From Ectocarpus siliculosus (taxonomy: Eukaryota; Sar; Phaeophyceae; Ectocarpales; Ectocarpaceae), in NCBI GenBank assembly GCA_000310025.1, contig FN649740.1:4731789-4795788 (forward strand): DNA of 64,000 nt, read 5' to 3'. Of the stretch, positions 329 to 53,470 are shown piece after piece (the stretch's first letter is position 1; every line of letters starts with the position of its first letter). Both the position numbers and the translations under genes were made by a program. Below the pieces are notes generated by a model, which saw only the letters and a list, made by a program, of their open reading frames with translations, was not told the DNA's origin and did no database searches.

Positions 329-14486
<14,158 letters not shown>

Positions 14487-36519: not shown

Positions 36520-39353
36520 TTACTTACAGTCGAAGCTCGTGAGCGTGATGGCTAACGCCTGTCATGCCGTGCAAGAACCAGGACAAGGGTCAGGGGGGCA
36601 GGGGGAGGTTAAGAAAAGAAAAAGGGAAGGAGCGGGGTAGAAGAGGATAACTACACTATTGATGGGGCGGCTAGCCGCGTAATGGTACCTCAGTAATGCC
36701 TGATGTGTACCGTACTGAGCAGACAGACACCGGCTTTCTAGCGTTAAGATGGCCACAACAACAACAACAACAACAACAACAATAACGCAGATATTAGATA
36801 CTTGCAGCGGAGACAAGGGGTGGCAGAAGTCCATGGTGAACTAATTCGTGCAACGACAGGGACAACGACAACAAGCACAACGAACAACAACGTAGATAGC
36901 GGCAACATACCTGCAGCGGAGACAAGGGGTGGCAGAAGTCCATGGTGAATTCATTCGTGTGAGTCCTCCCGAACTGCAAGGTGATCTGCTCCGTCACATC
37001 TCCCTGAACGACCAGCTGGAAGTTCTTCACGGACGCTTGAGTCACCCTCCCGTGGAAGTTCAGCACGAACGCCTGTACCTGTTGTTCGTAATAACACGGG
37101 GGGGAAGCCGGAGCATTGGTCGGGTGCGTACATGGGGAGGGGCTGGGGTTGAGGGAAGCGGGAGGCGAGACCATTCCGCGAATAACTGTTCACTATTCAC
37201 GGAAGCAACAACGTGTGCATTGTACGTGTGTTCATGTGAACTGAAAAAAAAGAAATGAATGGTGTTGGGGAAGGTGTGTTCGTGCGTGAACAGAAAAAGT
37301 AACCAAGCCAAGCCACACATATGTATAGCAACACAACCACACCAAACCTAGGGGGGCATGGAATTGCGTTTCTTCAAGAGAAAAGAACCCGGGCTGCCCC
37401 ACAGCATGCCACGCGGCCAAACGGTGTCATCATGGACACGGCAACGACGGCGACAACGAAAACCAAACGACAACAACTACTTCAACAATGACAACCATAG
37501 GACAACAACAACAACAACAACAGCGACGGCGACAACAACAAAGTACCATGACACCAAACACACCTTGGCGTTCCATCGCGGATTTCTGTTGATGAGGCAG
37601 GGCTCCTCTAGAGAGTCCAGGCTTCCCCTCAGCATGCGGTGAAGCAGGGACGATTCTGCCTCCACGTCCGCATTGTTGCCGTGCATGTTGCCCAGTACCA
37701 CCCTCATCTTGCGGGGCCCCTCGTACCTAATATACCAGACAAGAAGCAGAACAAAGGAAAACATCAAGGAGGGGGGGGAGGCATGAAAGAGAGAAAGCAA
37801 GGATAAGTCCAAGGATAAGGGATTACAGTGGCGGCTACGGTTCAAGAGAGGGTCGTGACAAACCACTATTTCTCTATTAAATCCGGTTTTCTCTTAAACC
37901 GTACTGTGACATGTATGTATTTCTCATGGTCGTGACAAGGCAGTTTGACTCTTAAATCGGTAATTTCTCTTAAATAGTCTCTCTTAAACCGTAGCCGGCA
38001 CTGCGTGTACAACTATCAATAGGGAGAGGGAGCTTGAGAGAGGATAAGTGGTAGAGGTGCGAGGCCGAAACAGGGGTTCCGCGGCATCACTGAGGCTGCC
38101 GGATGAGTACCCCATCTACTTTAATTGCCATGGCTTTCACGATGGAAGGAACCAGCACCGTATGACGTCATTAACATGATCGCCGTGGGTAGCCTCGTCC
38201 CGTCAGGAATACAGCAGCACGCACGTGGAAACGGCTGCGTACTCCCAAGCACAAAACGGGCGTGGACGGGGCGACAACTTCAGTACCACCGCCGAAACCC
38301 TTCATTGCCAGCAGCTACATCAAAACCCACAACCCACAACAAAAACAAAAACAACGAGAACACCATCAGCAGCAACAACAAAAACAACAGCAGCAGCATC
38401 AGCAGCACCAGCAGCACCAGCAGGAGCAACAACAATCTCACCGTCCATGCGGATCCATCTTGTCAGCCGAGTAGTGCACCGCAGCGACCTCCTTCTCCTT
38501 CCCGTTGCCCCTGTCGTCTGGACCGGTGAACCTCGGGCTAAACACCTGCAAGTACACACATACACAGGCCGGAGCTGAGCGTGCGTACCGTCTGATTCCT
38601 TCGTTGATGTCGAACTTTTTCGTATCTGCCATCTCACAAATCATCGTCGGCACGAAATGTAGACTACGCCTGTTGCGTCCCGCAGATGACAGAAAACATA
38701 CATACCGCTCGAATGACCTTGCCCACACATAGGAACAATAGCGTTTTGCGAGGGAAGTCGAGTGCTCTCAAAGGTCTCCGGCCGATCCCGTGACTCCACC
38801 AGTGACGAGGGTTGCAAGAAGAGAGAGCGAGAAAAAACGAACACCCAAGAACAGTAATGTTATGTGGTATATGTGGTATGTGGTACCTGAAACTCCTCCG
38901 ACGTCCTGGTGGTGGCCTTGAGTCGTCCCACGATGTTGCTGCTGTTGCCGTTGTCGTCACCGTCCTCCCCGTCCTCCATGCTCATCACGAACTGAGACGC
39001 CGAAGCTCCGCCTTTCTTACGAGCCGTCATCAGATAACGGTCCGGGAAATCTCCTGCCGCACGCGTGTGCCGTCATTTAGAGCGTACGGTACGGGAAGAT
39101 GAAGAAATTGCGGCGGGATACATGACGTTTCGGTGAATAGGATGGCGTATCAACGACCTGAGACGCCGAAGCCCCTTCTTTCTTTCACCGCCAGCGACAA
39201 AGGCTGCTATCCTCCGGCCCCCCGCAAAAAACGGCACTTTTTCAAGCAGACCCAAACATGTTGATACTCTCTCTCTATCTCTATCTCACCCTTTCCCTCC
39301 ATGTAGAGCTTGTACACCTCGTTGCCGCGGATGAGCTTGCTGAAACCTCGAAC
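36520..39353 (-). other. C-terminal Tubby domain of the myosin
   Basis: Six exons encode about 234 residues of a complete Tubby barrel: YKLYMEG then [106 protein letters not shown] and stop (36522-36520). The blocks [24 protein letters not shown] and the final SFD are the family signatures, and the C-terminal helix that plugs the barrel is present. The Lys/Arg pair in GPRKM sits where animal Tubby proteins bind PI(4,5)P2. Confidence 0.93.
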
Positions 39354-42300
39354 CTGTCGATATCAAATAAAGTCAAGAGCGACGGACGTTCAAACGACGA
39401 CAGGGAGGAAAAACATTGTCTTCAAATGTGCAGCCTTCTTGCGGAGATTCCCCCCCCCCTNNNNNNNNNNNNNNNNNNNNNNNNNNNNNNNNNNNNNNNN
39501 NNNNNNNNNNNNNNNNNNNNNNNNNNNNNNNNNNNNNNNNNNNNNNNNNNNNNNNNNNNNNNNNNNNNNNNNNNNNNNNNNNNNNNNNNNNNNNNNNNNN
39601 NNNNNNNNNNNNNNNNNNNNNNNNNNNNNNNNNNNNNNNNNNNNNNNNNNNNNNNNNNNNNNNNNNNNNNNNNNNNNNNNNNNNNNNNNNNNNNNNNNNN
39701 NNNNNNNNNNNNNNNNNNNNNNNNNNNNNNNNNNNNNNNNNNNNNNNNNNNNNNNNNNNNNNNNNNNNTTTTGTAGGGAAGCCACCGGGAGACACGAGGG
39801 CATCCCACAAAGGAAAAAAAAAAACGCTGGTTGGTTGATTCATGGAGGGTGCTCCTCTCGTCTTCTTTCGTTGGGAATGGATTCTTTTGACGCACCTCCT
39901 TTTCTTCCTCCTTGCGTTACGCGCATGCCGAAGTTTTTCTCCCCCTTTTCGCCCCCCTTTTGTTGAACATACACAACAAACCCCCCCAACACAATCCAGC
40001 AGTCGGCAGCTTCAGCTTCAGCTTCAGGGGGGGTGGGGGCGACAGCAACCCCCAAGAAGCGAAGGGTGGGAGGGGCTTCAACGGGGCAGGGAGGATTTAG
40101 GATGAGGTTTTATCACAAAAATTGAAAAATTGCTCTGTATACCTAGCTATATGACCGGTAGCAGCACAAGCACAGAGGGAGAGACTCACGAAACATTTCG
40201 TAAATAAAAGGGAAGGGGGGGGGGGGTGCTGCAGTTGAACACGAAAAGACGGGGTGTGAACCCCCTTAGGTCGGGAGTCAAAGACGCTCGAAAAAAAACA
40301 AAAAACAATCGAGCCCTGATTGGTCGAGAACAAAAAAACAGCTAGTCTGGGTTGTTGTTACAGAGCTCAATTTTGACTTTTCGATAAAAAAAAAAACTGA
40401 CAAGGCTTTTATTGTTCAAGTCAAGCAATCCAAGACCCCATTTTTTGTAGCCGGGAGCCGATTACTTTTTCCGGCCAAGGGAGCCAACCGATTTTGATTT
40501 TGTTCGAGCCTCGTTAATTTACTACGGGAGCAACCTGACCCCTTACCGCGTTGTGGAAAAGTGGGTTGTAGCGGCCGACCGACATTCCCCCCTCGTCGTC
40601 CCCCTCCCCCGCACCCGCACCCGCGGCGCCCCCATGGCCGCTGTAGAAGCGGGAGAAGGTGCCGCCGGAAGACGAGCCTGACTTGAACTTGTCTTGCATG
40701 TCCATAGGCATGTCGGTGTCGGAGTCGTAGTCGGGCATGATGCCCAAAATCTGAGGGATTAAAGTCGGGGGGTTGGTGGTGCGGTTTGGATGCCGGGGAA
40801 GGCAACTAACTGAGAATTGCCATACAACACTGCGCTCGTAGTAGTTGGTACGGGGGAGCGGGCACAGCAGTAGTGCCGGCATGCTCCGCTCAAATCCACA
40901 GAATCCTCAGCAGCCCAAACCACTTGTGAAACACACAAAAAAATGAAATAAAAATTTACAGCAAGAAAAAGAACTACGAGGACGACAGAGCGATATATAC
41001 ATAGCGGGGTGGCTCTCTCACTCTGTCCCGTCTCTCTTCTCTCTTCTCTCACCGAATTGCCGTTATCGACAGGGCTATCCTGTGCGAACTCCCCCCCCGC
41101 CCCTCCCCCTCCCCCGCTGCTCCTGTCCTTCTTGCCGCCGCCACTGCCCCCTCCGATCAGCTTCCCCATCAAGCTACCCCCGCCAGAGGCAGCCTTCTCC
41201 GCCTTCTTCGCAGCCTGTGTTTTACGTATTGGAATATACCATGTATTTATTAACAGGCGACCGTTATTGTACGGAATTTATTTTGTTGCGACACGTTTCT
41301 CTTTTCGAAACGCGACAGTACGAAACGCGTGATCACAGTAAAATCATGTACATTACAAGCTTCAGATTCTGCGTGTATCTTTATTTTTTCGCACGTGGGG
41401 GATACTACAACGGTGTCGTAGCTCCGAACTAAATAACGCGGACCCCCACGTAGATACCGTGCGTACAATACGTTCATAGACAACCCTGCTTGCAGTCTGG
41501 AAGACCAAATAAGCACAAGACAAGGAAGGCACATGGAAGACGACGGATGAAAAATACACCTTCGACGTACATAGAATATGTACAATATGACAAGAGAGTC
41601 CTACACAGATACAAATGTAAAATACACCTTCGGCGTACATAGAATATGTACAATATGACAAGAGAGTCCTACACAGATACAAGTGTAAAATACACCTTCG
41701 ACGTACATAGAATATGTACAATATGACAGGAGAGTACAGCAGTACACACAACGGCGATGTATGTAGATTTGTTGTTGTGTTCGTCGAGAAAAAATGGTCC
41801 AACTGACTCGGGCGCCTTCCGTGGTCTACGGCCAACCATTTACATACCACTTTCGAACCCAAAACGCACATCCCCAGTGCAAAACCGCGCGCCATTAACA
41901 TACTTCGAAGTATAAAAAATCGACGAACCTTCTTCCGCTCTTCCTCCTCCTTCTTAATCCGCTCGTCCTCTGCCTTCTTGGCAGCGGCCAACCTTCTCTC
42001 CTCCTCCTCCCTCCTCCTCCGTTCCTCTTCCTCCCTCGCCCGTCGTTCCCGCTCCTCCTTTTCGACCTTCAATCGCTTCGCCGTCTGTCGATCGACGTGT
42101 CCCCTATTGACAGGTAGGTTCGTTTTTTAAACGAAAGGCGGTGAGGAAAACAGCAGTAACAACAACAACAACAGCGACTGCGACGACGATAACGGCACCG
42201 CAGAAGACAACGAAAACTACGACAGCAGCAACAGTAGCAGCAACGGCAGCAATATTGAAAGACACCAGCAGCTAAATCGCAGCAACAGCAGCAGTATCGA

Positions 42301-44998
42301 CAACGACAGCAACAATGCCGACAGAGAGAACAGCAACCACAGCAACAACAATTGCAGCAGCAGCCGCAGCAATAGCACAACAGCAGCAATGTCATCAAAG
42401 ACACCAACGACGACAGCAACAACCACATCGCAGCCGCAGCAGCCGCAGCCGTAGCCGCAGCAGCGTCAGCAATGTCGTCACAGACAGCGACAACGACAGC
42501 AACCACCAAACCGCAGGAGCAGCAGCAACGGCAGCAGCAGCAGCTGCAGCAATGGCGACAACGACTCCGATAGAAACAGAAAAAAAAATCTCACCTCCAC
42601 AACTTCTGCGCCACTATCGCGGAGGTCCGAAGCCTGAGGTAGGGCCTGCGCTTGGCGTTCCCCATGAGCGCCCGCTGCACCGTGACTACTTTCACTCTAA
42701 CGAACTTCCCGCGCTCCTCCTCCATCTGCTCGAGCACCCCAGCTCGGAAATACACCTGTGTCCGCGACGTTTCAGTTTCAGCACCTGTCAGCTTTTCTAC
42801 GGTTGAAATTTTCCAAGGGATAAAACCAAAATAAGGGCGGGCTCGACAACCCGTAATAGTGCCGAGGAAACTTTGACGTTAACAGATTCACGACAAGTAT
42901 CGCCAGGATCAAATTCGTCTCCACGTCAAACGCGGTTATTTCCAGTTCCATCACGGGTTGGAGTAAACGGCACAAAGGATGTGAGCGCTGATTTTTGGAG
43001 TCAATACTACAAAAAAAAAAAAAAGACCCACTAGGGTTGTCGTTCTTGAATCTATACTGCCTTGTCGCCCTGCATCAATCAATGCACAATGCACGGCGAC
43101 AAAACCAGCAACCCCAACGGAACACATCTGACTCAAACAACCGCGCACGACGCCGCCAACAGCAATAACGGCAACAACAGCAACACCGCTCTCTCTCTCT
43201 CCCCACCTTGGTATTACCAAGACAGCACTTGCTGTCCTTTTCGCGTCCCAGAAGCTTCTCCAGAATGAACTTGCACTGCGACGACTCCGACCGTCTTCAA
43301 GAAAAAAGGAACAGAAAAAGAAGGAAAAAAAAACATTTGTGAGTGCCATGCCAAGGGTTTCCAGCAACCCCGGAACAGGCGTGGATGCCGGAAAACCATG
43401 CACGTACGGAAAAGCGTGGGATGGGATGGGACGGGATGCGAGAATGCGAAACGAAAGTAAAAACAGCTTCAACTGTGCGTACGAATGTACATACAAGGCT
43501 CCCCTTCCGGGATAGGTACACTTGCCTCCCGGGGGCGACGCAAGAGGACATGGCCACTGCTATAATGGTTGCATCGTTGTATATCTCAACCCACCTCCGG
43601 TAGTGCCACGGTTCGTTTCGGAAACTAACTCGCATCAATTTGCATCAATTTGCATCAATTTGCGGTGGAAACGTTTTTTCGCCGTTACTCTTCGTGAGTG
43701 CTCTCGCGGTGTCGTTGCCGTAGATCCTACTACTGCTGAAACACAGACTGCCGCTGCTGTGTTCTTCAACTAGATGCTTTTCGGCGGGTATTTGTGCGGT
43801 CATCGCTCGGAAGTTTCTGCGCAGAATCTCTGTGGTCATTCGGCGGGAAATAAGTATCGTTTCTTTTTGCGATATACCCCGGCGGTAAACGGGAATAAAT
43901 TGGAGCCGGTATCGTTCCGTATTTGTCCGTGATGCTTGTTATGCAGCAGTTGGCCTGGTGAGTCCCAAGCACACATACGATAGGGAAGCGGCGTCCTTGC
44001 CGCAGGTCGTACTGCTATAACCCGCTGCTCTTGCTCTCTCTCTCCCTCCCTGTTGTGTTTTGTACGGCGTTGCTCATGATGTGTGGAACGTGTGTGCAGT
44101 TTGAGCACGCGACAAAAAAATCAGAACAATGGTTCCCTCTTGTACGGATGACAAAAAACGTATTGTAAATCCTGCAAAGACCTTTGTGGTTCGGATTCGC
44201 GACCCCTGGAATAGAGCCAGTGCCAGCGACTTCTGAGCGGCCATCACGTGCATCACCGAGGTCCCGCGAGCCCGACGCGCAACGGGCAATGTGCCGACGG
44301 GTCCTCTGAGTGCCATGCAGACAAACGTGTGAGAAAGAACGCTGTCCCCGGAAGAGGAATAGACCAAAACCAAGCAAACAAGTGGACTTGGTACATCATG
44401 CAGACAAACGTGTGAGAAAGAACGCTGTCCCCGGCAGAGGAAGAGACCAAAAAACCAAGCAAAAGAGTGGACTTGGTACATCAAATGCATATACCTGGCG
44501 AATGCCGCCGCCTCCTTCTCCCTCGTGGCCTTGCTAGCGCCGCCACCCCCCTTCGTAACCTTGTTCGCCATCACCTCGAAACGTCGAGAAAACTCGCGGA
44601 AAATCATGCGGTTGGGGTACGCCGCTCGCGAGATTCGAATCGCCTGTTTTCACGATTTTCACGAGCGAGGTGCACATGTGATTTTTGTTCAACATGACAA
44701 CGGGAGAGGAACAAAAAATAGGGGGCGGAGGGATGAGGGGAGGGAGGCGAGAAGCAAGAAGGGATCGCTAGGAAAGAGCGGGCGAACGGGTACGACGCTC
44801 GTGGCCCCAGGAACACATAACACACAACTTGCAATGGACTGCTGTTGCTGCGGAACTCCAACAGAGCACAATGTACGACAGCCAGCGACACGCGATGGGA
44901 TGCAGACACAAAGAGGACCAAACAAGACAAGACAGCAGCAGCAAACAACAACAACAACAACAGTCACAGCACCAATAACGGCAGAAGCAGTCAAAACA

Positions 44999-45031
<33 letters not shown>

Positions 45032-48000
45032 AACCACAAACCAAATTTAAACGAGACCATGCTTCTCACCTCCACAACCCCTGCACATCTCAGCTGCTCC
45101 ACCACCATGAGGCAGTTCAGCTCGTCCTTCGACTTGTTCGCGTTCGGCTTGATGCACCGGACGTACTGCACCTCAGTCCTCTGGATGGCCGCCATCAGGG
45201 CGTGCAGCTGACGCTTGAACTTGGATCCGAGGGACTCCTGTTGGACGCAGACGAAGAACAGAACAATAACGACGACGGCACAGCAGCGAGTGAGTGAGAA
45301 AAACGAAAAAGGGAATGGGCGTTGTAGTGGATGCTTGTGAATACTGAATAATGCGACACAATTCTTCACGAATTGCTTGGACAAGTTGCGAGTGTTTCTG
45401 GCAATCTCTCTTGTTATAGGAGGATATCCACAGTATTTAGTGGAGAACAGTGACAACCAAAAGAAGAGCAAACAGAGAGTAGAAAGGAACAACAAAGCGG
45501 CCTGGATCAAAAGAGCAATTGCCGGCGATTTATGTTGAGAAAGAAGGAAACGAGTCACTACTGACGGGCAGATGATCAACATACACGAAAACACTGCTCC
45601 TGAAAACAAATTTAGCCGTGACACGGTCGTGTCGACAAACGTTTTCTTCGCGTGCGCCCCGCCCCAAAAACAAAACACGCACCAAGGACATGGAAATTTC
45701 ACACTTCGAAATATCCCCCCAACAACAACAAATCTTGACGGCAGAACAAGACTCTGAAATGTGGAGGCAGGACTAAGACTATTTCCCAAACAAGCGGTAA
45801 CGCTCAGTCACAAGACAATACAATAAACATCGGATGAGAAACAAAGAAACCAGCGAAAACTCACCTGCATGAGGGAGCCCTTTCGTTGTCGGCTGTTGGG
45901 GCCATTCGAGTCCTGGGGTAGCAAGGGCTTCGCCTGGCTCTTGAAGCAGGACCCGAGCACCCCGTTGGTGGACTGTGACAACATCTGCACCAAGTCAGAC
46001 TGCAGGAAGAAAAAAAAACAAAAACAGACACAGGTAAAGCGCGGTCCATGCTAATCGCTCACAGGTAGTGTAAATTAACATTTTTTGGGGGGGGTTGGAG
46101 GACAACTAAAAACACACGCACGTAACCTGGTGTGGTGCGCGTAAAAAGAGCAATCATCTCGTCTGGAGAGGACCAGCGAACACAGACAAACATCCTACGC
46201 CCGTGAAGCGAGAGCAAACACCACAATAGTTACGCCATCGAGCGGCAACGGCGGCGACGGGGACACCTGCAGCTGATCCTTGTTCTTCTCCACGAAGCCC
46301 CCGGTGTTGTAGACTACTCTGCCGGCGTAGTGGTGGACCGTGAATTCGAGCTTGGTCGCGAAGCGGTCCTTGCCGAAGTTCTCGTGGTCCTTGTACGCCT
46401 GCGCGTTTTGTCCGTGGAAGTTGAAAAAAAAAAAAAAAGGAGGTACATCAACCGTAAGATGACAACGTCAAAATACCAGCAATACCAACAGATCGCAGAA
46501 ACACCCATCAAGACCAACTAGCATCAAGACACACCCACGATACGAATAAAAAAACACAAAAATGACATCATGGAGAACAAAATAACACTGTAGGTCTACA
46601 ACAAGCATCAACCTCAACATCATCAACAACAACAACTGCGAGGCAGGATCCTTGACTGCCTTGGAAGCCAAGCCTCTTCTGCGACACCTTTCATCACCGA
46701 CAATACTGCAACACCGAGAGGGAGGCAGGAAGGCACCTTGATTGCTTTCGAAGCATAGGCCTCATCCGTCCCCTGGGGGAGCATGCACTCCTCGTCGAGC
46801 AGAGAGAGCAGGCCTCTCCGTGGCTCCTCTATCATGCCCAGCACCGCCGCATTGTCCTGGAAGTCGATGTGTGACCACGGGATGCCCTCCTCTTGGTACT
46901 CCACCTACCCTCGGGGGCAATAAAAAAACAGTGAAAAAAGAAGGTCCGGTCCGGTTAAAACAAATGAAGAAAACAAAAGCACACACGTTACACTTCGGAG
47001 AAACTCACGAGCCCATACATACATATACGAGTTGACGGAAACAAAAATGGGACCTGTACGAGATTGGTGCTTGTTGAGTTTCTCCGATTTGGGGTACGAG
47101 GCAGAGCTTGTGGTACCAGGTATCATGCATGGCGTACACACGGTGGAACGTAGGCCACATGGTACACAGGCAGGCTTGGTTTCCGCAAGAGATCTTGTGT
47201 TTATTTTTCGACCGTTTTTCTGACAATCAAAGTCGTCCTGATCGTCCCTCTTTGGGTCAAAAACATACAAGAGTGTGTGACACGTTTCGAAAAAAAAAAA
47301 TCGAACACATCACCACGACAAAGACATGAAAAAAATCAAATCACACGTCTTTCGGAAAGTTCTATCTCTCGACGAGACAGACGGTCCCAAAGCCTCCCGC
47401 CGTTTTCGGCGCAACACCCATTATTTGTGCTGCAGAGTAATCGGGCCTGGAAGATCGGTCGAAGCAGTTGTGTCATCTAACGCTACCTACTCCACGGCAT
47501 GCGGAAGCATTCATATTCCTCATTCTTCGCGTATTTTTTTTTTGTACGCACCTGAACGTTCTTGAAGACATCCTGTGTGAACTTTTGCTGCAGTTTCTCG
47601 TTGGCGTAGTTGATGCAGAACTGCTCGAAGCTGTTGTGCTGGAAGGTCTCGAAGCCGAAGATGTCCAGGAGGTCGATGGTTCCCTTGTTGCTGCCGTCGG
47701 AGCATCGCATCGAGTCGTTGATCTTGGCCACCAGCCAGTCGAACATCCTGTGTCATCGCAAAGTAGCGTGTTGCAGGGGGTTTGTGGTGTCACCTGCAGT
47801 ACAGTAGATCCGTGCCAAGGCCGGTAGGGGCCCTTCGCGGACAACGAAAGCACCACCGATGCCACCACGCACAACAAAAAACAGGAAACACAACCACCAC
47901 CACCACCACATGAACAAAAATGACAACAACAGACTCTGCCTGTAACCCCCACAGCCACCAAACGCTATCACCCAAGGAACACAAGGCCAACAATAACAGT

Positions 48001-51000
48001 AGTAACCACCACCAACACCAGAACAAAAAAAAAAAAAAACACGAACAGAAGACGGGCGCCTTCACCTGCAATAAATCTCCTTGGCGAGACCGTCAAGGCT
48101 GTCCGTCGCAGCCGCGGGCGACAGAGGCACGTTGATCGTCTTCCCCTCCACCTTGACGGAGCGGTGTGTCAGGTGCTGCCCTAGATCGCCGGGCGTCACG
48201 CCGAGCATCGTTGCTGGTGCCACTAGCTTCTCCGAGTCGCGCGCCTCGCACTCGTGCGCCCCGCTGTCGCTGGCTTTCTCCACGAAATCGATCTAGTCGG
48301 AACGACCGGGGTGCGGCAGGAGGAGACAGCCAACAGCGTGCCACACGAGAGATCAGAGAAGGAAAATAGAGGGAGAAAGAGAGGAAAGAGACACCAAAAA
48401 TGGGGAGATCGAAGAGAGAGTTAAAATGAGAGAGGAAAGGGGTGGGGTGGGTGGGTGGGTGGGTGGGTGGGTGCGTGGGGAAACAAGCGGGAACAACAAA
48501 CACGCACTGCGGGAAAGCCGTGGCTGACGTACGTCAATAGGCCAAACGCCCAAGTGTTTTTTCGGAAAGAAGCCATATCCCATAAAAAAAAATCCACGTT
48601 CAACGTGCACCGCAACACTGAAGGGTGCGTGTTAATTTCATCGTATCGTATATTCTAGTTGGGAGTATAATATCGAGGGTTTGGGAAGGTTCTAAGTTGT
48701 GTAGATTTATTCAATTTCTTGATTGGGTTGGGGAAGACAAAAACGACAAAGGAGACACAACAAAAAAGGGACAGACAGGGATGCCTGTTTTACCTGTCCT
48801 AGGTGCAAGACTCCAGAGACAGCCGAGAGGAGCTCTGACTTCTCCTTCTCAGCCATGCCGATGATGTCCAGAGCGTCCGAGGTCTGCCGGAAACGGTCAC
48901 CGTCCGACATCCCCTCGATCACACCTGTTCACAGGAATGTATGTGTTTTGTAATATCGATAACGAGGGCACAAGTTGTTTTTTGCTGACCCGTCTATTCT
49001 CAATCTACGAGGACACAAGGGCAACAGAACGAGGTGTGTTGACCCATTTTGACCAACAAGGACATGCAGTAGGGCAGTAGGACTAGAGGCTTCTAGGTTG
49101 ACTGTTCTCGAACAATGATGGCGAGAAAACAATGCTTCAAAATTCTAAAGCAGCATGACATCCATACAACAGGAAGAGAAAATGCTTCTATTTCGTCCGT
49201 TCTCAGTCAACGAGGGCATTACATAGGGCCACCCGCCACCCCCTCCTGGACGGAAACCCAGTGGGCATGCCATGTACCAGAACGTCTCCTGGTGAATTGT
49301 TTGCCTTCAGCCTGAGAGCGAGAAATGTTTGGTACTCTTTTCGGGGGTGCAGGTTAGAGGGCGTACAGTACCTTTTTGGTCCCCTCCCATGCTGGTGTAT
49401 CGGAAGGAGGCGCTCCCCTGCCCCTCCAGCCCGTAGCGTTTCTTCTCAGACTCCGGTGCCGCCAGAAGCTGTTGATGGTGATGATAACGTCAAAAACAAC
49501 ATGCAAAGATAAGCAACAAAGATGACAGACATGGTACCAGCACCAGCACCAGCACCACCGTCATCATTAACAACAACCATCGGTCAACGACACCGTCAAC
49601 AACAACAACAACAACAACAACGATAGTTAACAGTTTTGCGTGCGTGAACATCATCATCATGTGGACAGACGACAGCAGTGGCTCAAGACCAAATACTCAA
49701 CACATCCAATGACGGGGCCTCTCGTCGCGAACACGACAAGAGTTTCGAGCAGCGTGAAGATCGACATTCTCCTATGCATAAAACGTTCAAACGTTCCCAA
49801 GGATGTATTACAAGCAAAATACATGGTAATTTCACCCCACGCTTGTGGACAACACCGGACGCTGTCCGTCGCAGCCTTGCTGAAGGTGTGTAGAAGAAGT
49901 CTACGGAATCTTCAACAGCAAAGCACACGTCATACACCTGGTAGAAGAAAGTCTACGGAATCTCCGACAGCAAAGCACACGCCACACACCTGGTAGAAGA
50001 AGTCTACGGAATCTCCGACAGCACGCAAGCACACGTCACACACCTGGTAGAAGATGTGGTACGTCCGCTCTCCCCTGGCGTGCGACACGACCCGGACCTT
50101 CTCCAGCAGGTAGGTGTTGCTCTGGGACCCCGCCAGGCGGCACCTCGAGTCCAGCTGCAGCTCCGTGAACTTGCCGAACCGGCTAGAGTTGTCGTTTCGA
50201 AGGGTCTTCGCGTTGCCGAAGCTCTCGAGAAGAGGGTTCGACGTGATCACCTGATTGATTTTCACACAGCACGGAAGCGGCCGGGGTGTGGGGGTGTGGG
50301 TCGCAAAACGTCGTACGAAAGCGGGGGGGGGGGGGGGGCGGCGGTACTCATGTAAACGCATACATCCCGTAGTGGTTAGACCATTGACCTCGCATCCCTA
50401 CCACGCCGGTACGACGGAGCGACATGTCCGGTGTTCGCCGGCCCGGGATAGTAGTACTACATGCGTCACAAGGGTGAACGAAAAGCCGGTCATCATTCCT
50501 GCCGAATTCGAAGCGGCTCTACAATATCTGGAACAAGTTATTCAAGGCGATGCCTTCGCCTTTCAGAGGGAAGTCAGCAGCGGATTGGCCTGGAGGCGTA
50601 TCTGTGGTTGGCAGGGCGGTCAAGAACCGGAAAACGACCACGTTGTGACAAGGCGGCCGAACCAACACGAGCAAGAACCAGAGCATGTAAATATCTACTA
50701 AAATACCTATGCTATTCCGTGGGGTTTTGGTAGCAAAACTCACACACAGAGATATACCAGCACCGGACACAAAAGGTTGTGTGGGCCTCAGGTATTTTAA
50801 TTTTATCCAACTACAATAGAGGTGATATCCTTTATGCCAGCACAACAACGAAAGCTCAACACCAATTGACCGGCCCTCCACACCACGTATATTGCATATC
50901 TCGCGCCACGTGCAGCCGAGGCCTTTCAAGCAACTGCACAATGTCAAGGGCCAAGAAGCACCGCTTGATCCTCCCCCCTAGATGTCGTGCCAACTATAAA

Positions 51001-53470
51001 ACTGCGAGTCCCACGTAGCAACGTACCTTCTCTATCGTGCGGTCGTCGGCGTGGGACCCCGCGATGTCGGCGAGGTGGTTCAGAAGGATCTTCACTGTCT
51101 CCGTCTTCCCCGCCCCGCTCTCGCCGCTGACCAAGATGCTCTGGTTCACGCCGTACGTTTGCAAGCCCTTGAAGGCCTGGGCACTCGTCGCGTAGACGTG
51201 TGGCGCCATGTCCGACCGCTTCGAGGCTTCCTTGTACCGTTGCCCGAGTTCCTGCACAAACAAAAAAAATGAGATAAGAGTCGTGGTCCCGGCTAAAGCG
51301 TTTCCCTGTAGCGGGATGCCTTAAATAGCGGGTTTCCCTGTAGCCGGGATGATCCCGGCTAAGCGCTTCCCTGTAGCGGGATGCCTTAAATAGCGGTCCA
51401 ACATCTCGTGGCACAGCAGCTGCACCTCGGTAGTCAAACTACCACACAACCGCCAATTGGGTTGATAGCGACGACGCCCTCAACAACGGTTAAAACATTG
51501 TGCGGCCCAATGGACCGCTAACCCGGGACCAAGACTAAACAGTAGAGAAAACATAAAAAAAAAATGAAACACGTGGAGAAGTGGCGAGCGAAGGGTACTG
51601 CCCTGAACTTTTGGAAGAAAAAGATAGAAATGAAAAAAGAAACGACACCCCGCGGACAAACGGAACCACAGATATATGTGTCTGCGCGCATGTGTGCTTG
51701 TTCAACCACCACGACCGCTGCAACCGGCTGACCAATGAAAATGCGAGCCCAGTTAAGATCCCCTGTAACTAAAACCTATGTACCATTTGTAGCATATGAC
51801 CCTACAGGTCCTAAGCATCCCAGCCTCGGTAACAAAAGCTCGGTACGGTACATACCTTCCCGTAGATGTCCAGCCACTGGTACGGGTTTATGGCGATGCA
51901 GATCTCTCCCGTGTACGTGTAGGGCAGCAGGCTCATGAAGCGCCTCCGGAGGTTGTAGAGGATGGCCGGCTCATGGAGGTGGTTCAGGGCACACATGTCC
52001 GCGACTCCCTTCCCATCCGCCGTTTCGGCGTTCTAAGCGCAAAAAGAAGAAAAAAAAAAGAGAGGAAAAATTCAGTATTGTATAGGCTTTTAACAGACTC
52101 AAAAATAAGCTCGGTTTCGAGCCGGTTACCCGCCAATCACGGGAAAGACTTCAGCACATAAATCCCTTTCGACTGTGGTTATATATATAACGGTTATTCT
52201 GTGTGTTTTTCAATACTTTCCGAAAAATATGTAAATGGCTTCATGTTGCTGTCTGGTGAATACAGATTCGTGTTACTTTTTTTTTATTTGATCAGTATCA
52301 CCCAACGAATCCATCTCTATCGAATAAAATAGTCTAAGATAGTCTTTTTTTATTTTTGATTCCGTGAGGTGGTTCGGTTCGCCGGGCTCTCGGAGTCTGA
52401 AACACGTCAGCCAGCTGTGTGGGCTGTTCACGCTTGGACAACGTCACGGCTGGCAGACCGTCAACTTTTCGAGCCCATATTGTTATCTTGCATCACCCCT
52501 TTTATTGTGACACTGCTGTGCTCCCAGTAGCCAACTTCGGAGGTCACCCCCCCAACACATCGCGGGATCCAACAATCACAACCATTCCATCATGACCGTC
52601 GCAAAACAAACATCCAACCCCCGCTCACCGCCTCAAAAGCCACTCCCTTCCCTACCCACCCTTACCGGAAACATGAGATGCCTGTTCTCGCCCCCGCCGA
52701 GATACACCAAGAAAATCGCGACATTGGTCATGGGACAAACACATCCCCCCCCTCCACACACAGGCCTCCGTCAGAGTACAACGGCCACACGACTCTCACA
52801 AACGACAAATGAGTATCCAGCGAAAGAAGCGAGTCCATGCCCCAAACGTCCGCCGGCACGCACGCTTCCAGTACTGTAGGAAACGAAAGTCCTATGGAAC
52901 ACCAAACCAAGCATGCCACCACGACTATCCTATTGGAACCCCCCCAAATCCCTTGTCAATACACTCCGCCCCCAGCCCGCACTTGAAAGTTGCCATCACC
53001 CCCCACTCGCATCGGGAGCGGGATCTCGCGCCCCAAAACCACGACCATAGCGCATCCGCCCCAAACATGCAATGTATACGCACCAAAGACCACCAACCCT
53101 GCAACCCTCCCCCCCCGTAATAAGCTTCAGCCATTGCCCCTTCCCCCGGGCCTTTGAGAGAGCCTGGTCCGGAGAGAACCCGGCGTGCTCCGTCCCGGCT
53201 TTGTAGGAATGCGAGGTCAATGGTCTAAAGACTACGTCATGCACGACTATGAGTACACCCCCCCCCCCTCCGGGCCTGTACCTGCAATGGGAGGGAGTCC
53301 ATGCCCTCAAACCCCGGCCCGGACGCATCGACAACCACGGAGCCGGTTACGCGCGGCTTGAGCCCACCCCGCTCCTGTGACCGCTCCACCTCAACCTCGA
53401 ACCTGGAGCCCCCCAGCGGGTGCATCACGGTTGCTCTTGCCCACGCGATGTCATCATCCGGCACGTACAC
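36520..53470 (-). CDS. Myosin heavy chain with C-terminal Tubby domain (5' partial)
   Basis: Exons, 5' to 3': 53470-53282, 52032-51856, 51251-51027, 50250-50044, 49468-49372, 48924-48794, 48292-48066, 47747-47552, 46904-46737, 46398-46267, 45999-45865, 45237-45070, 44643-44495, 43294-43207, 42755-42595, 42103-41929, 41214-41053, 40750-40547, 39353-39290, 39053-38887, 38545-38442, 37726-37564, 37078-36911, 36558-36520. Lengths and phases close at all 23 joins, giving about 1,231 aa without the first exon, which I could not find. The protein is an actin-based ATPase motor with neck and charged helix joined to a Tubby domain, a fold that in animals binds phosphoinositides and so could tether the motor to membrane cargo (inference). 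The 39461-39768 gap lies between exons 40750-40547 and 39353-39290; the phase 0 join still fits, but a small exon could be hidden there. Confidence 0.92.
36801..36959. repeat. Partial duplication of a Tubby exon end in the next intron
   Basis: 36801-36850 repeats 36911-36959 almost exactly. The original is the 3' end of exon 37078-36911 with its donor. The copy lies 110 bases downstream in sense, inside the last intron. Its donor has changed from CAG|GTATG to CAA|GTATC and an in-frame TAG has appeared. Confidence 0.85.
39461..39768. other. Assembly gap (308 N)
   Basis: The N run is preceded by a C run. It sits in a myosin intron at the linker/Tubby boundary, so a small exon could be hidden here. 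Confidence 0.97.
40547..42755 (-). other. IQ neck, charged single-alpha-helix and Gly/Ser linker of the myosin
   Basis: After the converter come one degenerate IQ-like stretch ([16 protein letters not shown]) and one clear IQ motif across the 42595/42103 splice (AQKLWRGHVDRQ). Next are about 45 residues of alternating Glu and Arg/Lys ([19 protein letters not shown]), typical of a stable single alpha helix that lengthens the lever arm rather than a dimerising coiled coil. The exons at 41214 and 40750 encode low-complexity Gly/Ser/Asp sequence with no recognised domain, forming a flexible linker to the Tubby domain. A monomeric motor is therefore likely (inference). Confidence 0.8.
41551..41735. 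repeat. Tandem 68-bp repeat, 2.7 copies
   Basis: Copies start at 41551, 41619 and 41687, each with AAAATACACCTTCG and ATAGAATATGTACAATATGA. They are nearly identical and lie in the intron between the myosin charged-helix and linker exons. Confidence 0.92.
43632..43662. repeat. Decamer tandem repeat
   Basis: Three copies of GCATCAATTT in a myosin intron. Confidence 0.85.
44314..44482. repeat. Tandem 83-bp duplication
   Basis: Two copies starting at 44314 and 44397, each beginning CATGCAGACAAACGTGTGAG and ending near GGACTTGGTACATCA, with few differences. They lie in the myosin intron directly after the donor of exon 44643-44495. Confidence 0.92.
48441..48472. repeat. (GGGT)n microsatellite
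   Basis: About seven GGGT units on the plus strand in a myosin intron. Confidence 0.88.
49932..50046. repeat. Minisatellite that multiplies a myosin 5' splice site
   Basis: The donor of exon 50250-50044 (sense TACCAG|GTGTGTG) is repeated at 49990 and 49938 in units of 54 and 52 bases, each ending GACTTCTTCTACCAG or close to it before a GT. The exon ends HIFYQ in the motor. Use of the second donor would add 18 codons with no stop; use of the third would shift the frame. Confidence 0.9.
50341..50450 (+). repeat. Dispersed SINE-like repeat, copy 2
   Basis: After a long G run comes TACTCATG, then GTAGTGGTTAGACCATTGAC, CTCGCATCCCTACC and CGGTACGACGGAGCG. It is more diverged than copies 1 and 3 and lies in a myosin intron, antisense to the gene. 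Confidence 0.55.
52362..52560. repeat. Dispersed ~190-bp repeat, copy 1
   Basis: Shares the ordered blocks TTCGCCGGGCTCTCGGAGTC, CACGTCAG, GTGTGGGCTGTTC, CTTGCATCA and CACCCC..TTTATTGTGACAC with 57590-57750, and more weakly with 57125-57320. Non-coding; class unknown. Confidence 0.55.
53158..53262 (-). repeat. Dispersed SINE-like repeat, copy 3
   Basis: Reverse complement of copy 1 (28771-28873) with few differences, ending in a C run on the plus strand. It lies in the intron after myosin exon 53470-53282, sense to the gene. Confidence 0.6.

What the first reader, a model, noticed from the sequence alone, without database searches (positions are those of the whole stretch)
36520..53470. Myosin motor fused to a Tubby domain
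Twenty-four exons join in one frame from P-loop, switch I and switch II through an IQ neck and charged helix to a full Tubby barrel. Tubby domains bind phosphoinositides in animals, so this could be a motor that reads membrane lipid directly. I cannot recall an established class with this layout and cannot search for it.
Basis: partly seen in the sequence, partly recalled or inferred. Interest (0 to 1): 0.82.

Follow-up and report, generated by a model that had tools for sequence, protein, structure and literature searches.

The report
Myosin motor with Tubby-domain tail
A probable brown alga carries a gene for a myosin motor whose tail ends in a Tubby domain, a module that binds membrane lipids in animals; the fusion is very probably real and occurs in more than one gene of this genome, but the pairing was already listed in print in 2014 and only its function is unexplored.

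Summary
On the minus strand 24 exons (53470-36520) join through 23 GT-AG introns into one open frame of 1231 aa. Pfam gives Myosin_head E=9e-218 and Tub E=7e-48, profile 23-255 of 256. No transcript could be checked, but two more loci of the genome have a motor followed by Tub on the same strand. In one (C14) the lever/acidic exon and the first Tub exon are 150 bases apart, phase-compatible, and converter, lever, acidic linker and Tub read as one frame. Linker exons 17 and 18 score as coding. A fused protein is very likely. The pairing is not new: a 2014 survey (PMC3942036) lists Tub (PF01167) among tails of "myosin XXI" in heterokonts and haptophytes. Best reading: an actin motor attached to phosphoinositide-bearing membrane. 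The two key tubby lipid positions stay basic but swapped (K330 to R, R332 to K), and other pocket residues differ, so lipid binding is plausible, not shown. New member of a known kind.

The parts
36520..53470 (-). Myosin-Tub gene, 24 exons found (5' exon with start codon probably missing)
   Evidence: 23 of 23 GT-AG introns, one frame, 1231 aa
53282..53470 (-). Exon 1: N-terminal part (VYVPDDD...), SH3-like by recall; begins at a splice acceptor
   Evidence: no Pfam domain matched here
51027..51251 (-). Exon 3: P-loop GESGAGKT
50044..50250 (-). Exon 4: switch [10 protein letters not shown]
   Evidence: aligned to myosin Va
47552..47747 (-). Exon 8: switch II DIFGFE
   Evidence: aligned to myosin Va
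43207..52032 (-). Exons 2-14: Myosin_head domain (residues 74-767; the last few lie in exon 15)
   Evidence: E 9.1e-218
41929..42755 (-). Exons 15-16: end of converter, degenerate IQ neck and charged helix
   Evidence: IQ below cut-off
41053..41214 (-). Exon 17: Gly/Lys-rich linker
   Evidence: true-frame score 0.81; maximum of 255 intron windows 0.16
40547..40750 (-). Exon 18: acidic/Gly linker
   Evidence: true-frame score 0.64; not part of the Pfam Tub match, which starts in exon 19
39354..40546 (-). Intron 18, holds the assembly gap 39461-39768
36520..39353 (-). Exons 19-24: Tub domain to stop codon
   Evidence: E 6.9e-48, tubby structure 1s31 E 2.6e-28

Best explanation
It is one gene for an unconventional myosin with a motor nearest (among solved structures) to myosin V, a short IQ-like neck, a charged helix that may lengthen the lever, a flexible linker and a C-terminal Tubby barrel. 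Shown: the sequence of these parts, one open frame, and recurrence of motor then Tub at two other loci. Inferred: the motor hydrolyses ATP and moves on actin (catalytic motifs intact), and the Tub barrel is the cargo end, binding phosphoinositide headgroups of the plasma membrane or of vesicles, so that the motor pulls or tethers membrane directly without a separate adaptor, working like (but not a member of) class I myosins with their lipid-binding tails (recalled).
For: Gene model with 23 of 23 GT-AG introns. Myosin_head E 9.1e-218 and Tub E 6.9e-48 in one protein. Of 12 distinct solved motor sequences at E<=1e-150, 11 are named myosin Va or Vc; all 6 solved sequences matching the tail at E<=0.001 are tubby or tubby-related proteins. 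Linker exons score as coding in the predicted frame. Of seven Tub loci (my grouping of the matches), three lie downstream of a motor on the same strand (C15 window, C14, C62); random placement within 16 kb would give three or more with about 4e-8 (24 motor clusters counted by eye from the 96 matches, the 16 kb limit set after seeing the data). At C14 the converter, lever and first Tub exons join over introns of 402 and 150 bases, open in one of three frames only; the joined piece with further Tub exons matches Tub 3-251, E 4.9e-34. Published precedent for Tub tails in myosin XXI. Positions 330/332 of tubby are basic at all three loci: R,K in the window, K,K in C14, K,R in C62.
Against: No transcript evidence. 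Intron 18 contains a 308-N gap at exactly the junction. Linker exons 17-18 have no match at C14 or C62 at E<=1, and outside the window only weak low-complexity matches in the genome (best C40, E 8e-4). Exon 18 is not part of the Pfam Tub match: an exon 18-20 piece scores only profile 23-63, E 0.0067, below the cut-off. At C62 the chain of exons between motor and Tub was not modelled; its 47-residue Tub start is open in all three frames, so the frame rests on likeness to C14, and Pfam does not recognise that piece alone. The three loci could descend from one ancestral pair of neighbouring genes, so they are not independent. Against lipid binding: in the window tubby N310 is Q, Y343 is F, R363 aligns with E, and of the basic run 301-305 only three of five positions stay basic (alignment); in tubby even R332H lowers PI(4,5)P2 affinity, and residues 301-305 form a second binding site (passages of PMC10445746).
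Confidence: 0.72

Rival explanations
1. Two neighbouring genes: a myosin ending at or near exon 17-18 and a separate tubby-like protein beginning in intron 18 or at an ATG in exon 18.
For: Assembly gap in intron 18; exon 18 holds in-frame ATGs; four Tub loci (C8, two on C33, C21) show no significant match to the window's motor in the stretches fetched, about 4.6 to 15 kb upstream of their first Tub match, so unfused tubby-like genes probably exist in this genome.
Against: Exon 19 has an in-frame stop 12 bases upstream, so it needs a spliced-in start. Same order at C14 and C62, with 150 bases between the tail exon and the Tub exon at C14. Phases fit at the 17/18 and 18/19 joins. Published listing of Tub in myosin proteins.
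Confidence: 0.07
2. Fused protein in which the Tub domain has lost lipid binding and serves as a protein-binding module, for example for cargo or flagellar proteins.
For: Swapped basic pair, Q at 310, E at 363, weakened basic run 301-305; tubby-like proteins are described as membrane-associated adaptors for trafficking into cilia (start of the abstract of PMC10151737, listing).
Against: Basic residues at 330 and 332 at all three loci; Y343F, the state at 343 here, did not impair tubby clustering and is described as not substantially affecting affinity (PMC10445746 passages).
Confidence: 0.2
3. Pseudogene or assembly artefact joining unrelated pieces.
For: Gap within the locus; no start codon found at exon 1.
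Against: No stop or frameshift in 3696 nt, intact catalytic motifs, coding-like codon use in 23 of 24 exons, two other loci with the same order.
Confidence: 0.01

Closest known systems
Myosin XXI of heterokonts and haptophytes in the 2014 survey PMC3942036 (Sebe-Pedros et al., author name recalled)
   Same: Described with IQ and Tub (PF01167) among its tails, in heterokonts (the group suspected here) and haptophytes, within a myosin V-related assembly
   Different: Class membership of this motor was not tested by a tree; the passages read do not name the species with Tub or the order of parts. The name myosin XXI is also used for kinetoplastid myosins (listing), a different usage
Myosin V (solved structures of myosin Va and Vc)
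   Same: Closest motor domains of known structure, E down to 5e-160
   Different: Tub tail and about one degenerate IQ core; six IQs and a globular cargo tail in myosin V are recalled
Tubby / TULP proteins (PDB 1s31, 1c8z, 1i7e, 8fh3, 2fim, 3c5n)
   Same: Nearly the whole Tub domain aligns, query 16-234 of 234 in the best hits, E down to 2.6e-28
   Different: Behind a motor; lipid pair R/K instead of K/R
Class I myosins with lipid-binding tails (recalled)
   Same: Would work alike: motor attached to phosphoinositide-bearing membrane
   Different: Unrelated tail domain; not a member

Membership tests
Myosin superfamily | Complete motor domain with P-loop, switch I, switch II | tested here: met
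   Myosin_head positions 2-679 of 679, E 9.1e-218; [23 protein letters not shown]
Myosin superfamily | T, E, D or S at the TEDS position (rule and place recalled; has exceptions and does not define the superfamily) | tested here: not met
   Lysine aligns with a myosin Va glutamate at the recalled position
Tubby domain proteins | Tub domain over its length and above the curated cut-off | tested here: met
   164 bits against 27, profile 23-255 of 256; the first 22 profile positions are not matched
Tubby domain proteins | Basic pair corresponding to tubby K330/R332 | tested here: inconclusive
   R and K: charge kept, residues swapped
Heterokont/haptophyte myosin XXI (PMC3942036) | Tail with IQ and Tub among the class's architectures | tested here: inconclusive
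   Tub met; IQ only below the cut-off; class described
Heterokont/haptophyte myosin XXI (PMC3942036) | Motor domain branches inside the class in a tree | not testable with these tools
   No reference sequences of that class are held; only nearness to myosin V among solved structures was seen
Single fused transcript | One mRNA across exons 18 and 19 | not testable with these tools
   No RNA data; indirect support from C14

The most novel reading that the evidence does not exclude
The lineage evolved a family of at least three Tub-tailed myosins that use the Tubby barrel as a direct, lipid-selective membrane anchor, the varied basic residues (R/K, K/K, K/R) tuning each motor to a different phosphoinositide and so to a different membrane.
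Probability: 0.2. Interest if true: 0.55.

Novelty: new member of a known kind. Interest (0 to 1): 0.35.

Why it matters
A Tubby tail would couple an actin motor directly to phosphoinositides, without an adaptor, in a lineage whose polarised growth and secretion are little explored at the molecular level (my judgement, not searched). The combination is in print as a domain listing; I saw no functional study of it in the nine paper searches made here. The exon map and the three loci give concrete genes to test.

Tried and rejected
Chance neighbourhood of two genes: made unlikely by C14 and C62. Tub relatives in viral contigs: none of the back-translated patterns matched (close relatives only). 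Motors near the other four Tub loci (C8, two on C33, C21): no match to the window's motor reached E 0.2 in the stretches fetched; these reach about 6.3, 7.5, 15 and 4.6 kb upstream of the first Tub match (including weak ones), so a more distant or more divergent motor is not excluded; one search lists none near them. Linker elsewhere in the genome: beyond the window only weak low-complexity matches.

Literature: nine searches and eleven papers opened. Of PMC3942036 I read one section and passages; of the others passages or term counts only; no whole text. Only PMC3942036 gave Tub in a myosin tail. Whole-word 'tub' has no occurrence in the main text of PMC5583752, PMC5795050, PMC5378345 and PMC10547550, nor word-start 'tub' in PMC2375034 and PMC8215601. 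PMC4501334 names Tub only as a DNA-binding-protein family, apart from myosin. PMC7203096 holds one 'tub' by the search listing but none in its first 300,000 characters, the part held. The other papers listed were not opened, and supplements and most subscription papers were not searchable.

Structure prediction was not used: its rule accepts proteins that the DNA gives letter for letter in a frame, and a spliced protein is not that; none was submitted.

Full report
Observation. Pfam finds a complete Myosin_head (E 9.1e-218, profile 2-679 of 679) and a Tub domain (E 6.9e-48, profile 23-255 of 256) in that one protein. Against solved structures the motor is nearest to myosin Va and Vc (E down to 5e-160; 11 of the 12 distinct sequences at E<=1e-150 bear these names, the twelfth is called only 'motor domain of myosin'), and the 6 sequences matching the tail are all tubby or tubby-related (E down to 2.6e-28). 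A codon-usage test trained on the other exons puts the true frame above the five other frames in 23 of 24 exons, the exception being the 39-nt last exon; linker exons 17 and 18 score 0.81 and 0.64, while the best of 255 intron windows reaches 0.16. The training exons belong to the same gene model, so the test is internal.

Position 53470 is a splice acceptor; there is no ATG between the upstream stop and exon 1, and the first in-frame ATG is residue 16, so a 5' exon is probably missing. The IQ motif is below Pfam's cut-off (12.0 against 20.3 bits). The 308-N gap (39461-39768) lies in intron 18, 1193 nt long, third longest of 23.

One gene or two. No RNA can be searched here. The genome gave 96 exon-level matches to Myosin_head (65 of 144 candidates were scored, so a lower bound), which I group by eye into 24 clusters, and 12 matches to Tub at E<=0.001, 20 at E<=10, which I group into seven loci. 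Three of the seven lie within 16 kb downstream of a motor on the same strand: the window (C15), C14 and C62. Under random placement the chance of three or more is about 4e-8. The 16 kb limit was set after seeing the data; the figure speaks for linkage, not fusion; and the three may descend from one ancestral locus. For the other four (C8, two on C33, C21) no match to the window's motor reached E 0.2 in the stretches fetched, which reach about 4.6 to 15 kb upstream.

C14 is the sharpest evidence. Its converter exon (ending VGRTKIFIR), the lever and acidic exon, and the first Tub exon (TMRAFLNQPVEPQTGVIECMIRRKKG) join across GT-AG introns of 402 and 150 bases, phase 2 to 2, and stay open in one of three frames only (splice sites chosen by eye). 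With the further Tub exons the joined piece scores Tub 3-251 of 256, E 4.9e-34. A 150-base intron leaves little room for the 3' end of one gene and the promoter of another. Its last Tub exon was not found. At C62 the corresponding Tub start (AMRAFLTEPVPKKYGAIRCRV) joins over a 295-base GT-AG intron, but this short piece is open in all three frames, so the frame is chosen by likeness to C14; Pfam does not recognise it alone, and the exon chain from the C62 motor to its Tub was not modelled. The window's linker has no counterpart in these loci and only weak low-complexity matches elsewhere (best C40, E 8e-4), so it diverges fast or was gained separately. Exon 18 is not part of the Pfam Tub match.

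Mechanism. Shown: intact ATP-site motifs and a nearly complete Tub domain in one frame. Inferred: an actin motor whose cargo end is the Tub barrel. In mouse tubby K330 and R332 are the PIP2-binding pair; passages read say that the matching pair places plant AtTLP3 at the plasma membrane and that changing it can disrupt this (PMC6366083), and that in tubby R332H lowers affinity and the double alanine change lowers it further and nearly abolishes clustering (PMC10445746). The window has R and K at these positions, C14 K and K, C62 K and R, and the apparently unfused C8 gene K and R. Against full lipid binding in the window stand Q at 310, E at 363 and a weaker basic run at 301-305, three of five basic, the last described as a second PI(4,5)P2 site. 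F at 343 is tolerated in tubby. I therefore hold lipid anchoring as the leading reading, with a protein-binding Tub as the main rival. A lysine aligns with the myosin Va glutamate at what I recall as the TEDS site, which could affect regulation.

What is known. The 2014 survey PMC3942036 (section 22 and passages read) states that myosin XXI homologues, found in heterokonts and haptophytes, have tails including IQ, WW, PX and Tub (PF01167), and groups them with myosin V-related myosins. It includes Ectocarpus siliculosus, but the passages do not say which species have Tub. So the pairing is in print. A 2017 survey (PMC5583752, passages) counts Ectocarpus plus Saccharina myosins among unclassified orphans and has no whole-word Tub in its main text. 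Passages of PMC5795050 report expansion of myosins XXX and XXI in Pseudofungi.

Verdict. A very probably fused myosin-Tub gene, one of at least three loci in the genome with a motor followed by Tub; a new member of a known kind, function untested. Confidence in fusion about 0.92; in the whole statement with lipid anchoring 0.72.

Noticed in passing
window 2641-11678, minus strand: APS kinase (ORF 10794-11678, E 1.1e-14), ATP sulfurylase (matches at 6444-7386) and inorganic pyrophosphatase (ORF 2641-3501, E 6.3e-6) follow each other on one strand, possibly a fused sulfate-activation gene of the kind recalled from other heterokonts; a 100-N gap lies at 10281-10380.
   Followed up: partly
window exon 7 (48066-48292), minus strand: Lysine at the position aligned with a myosin Va glutamate at the recalled TEDS site, an apparent exception to the TEDS rule.
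   Followed up: no
window 36520-36535, minus strand: The last codons contain a GTAAGT donor-like site, so an alternative C-terminus through a further exon is possible.
   Followed up: no
L006 (C33) and L007-L008 (C33): Two Tub loci about 48 kb apart on one strand, without a detected motor in the stretches fetched.
   Followed up: partly
L003-L004 (C62): A more divergent third motor-Tub locus: its Tub piece carries the canonical K/R pair, while one tblastn alignment puts HMFRLE opposite the window's switch II DIFGFE, so its motor may be catalytically altered.
   Followed up: no
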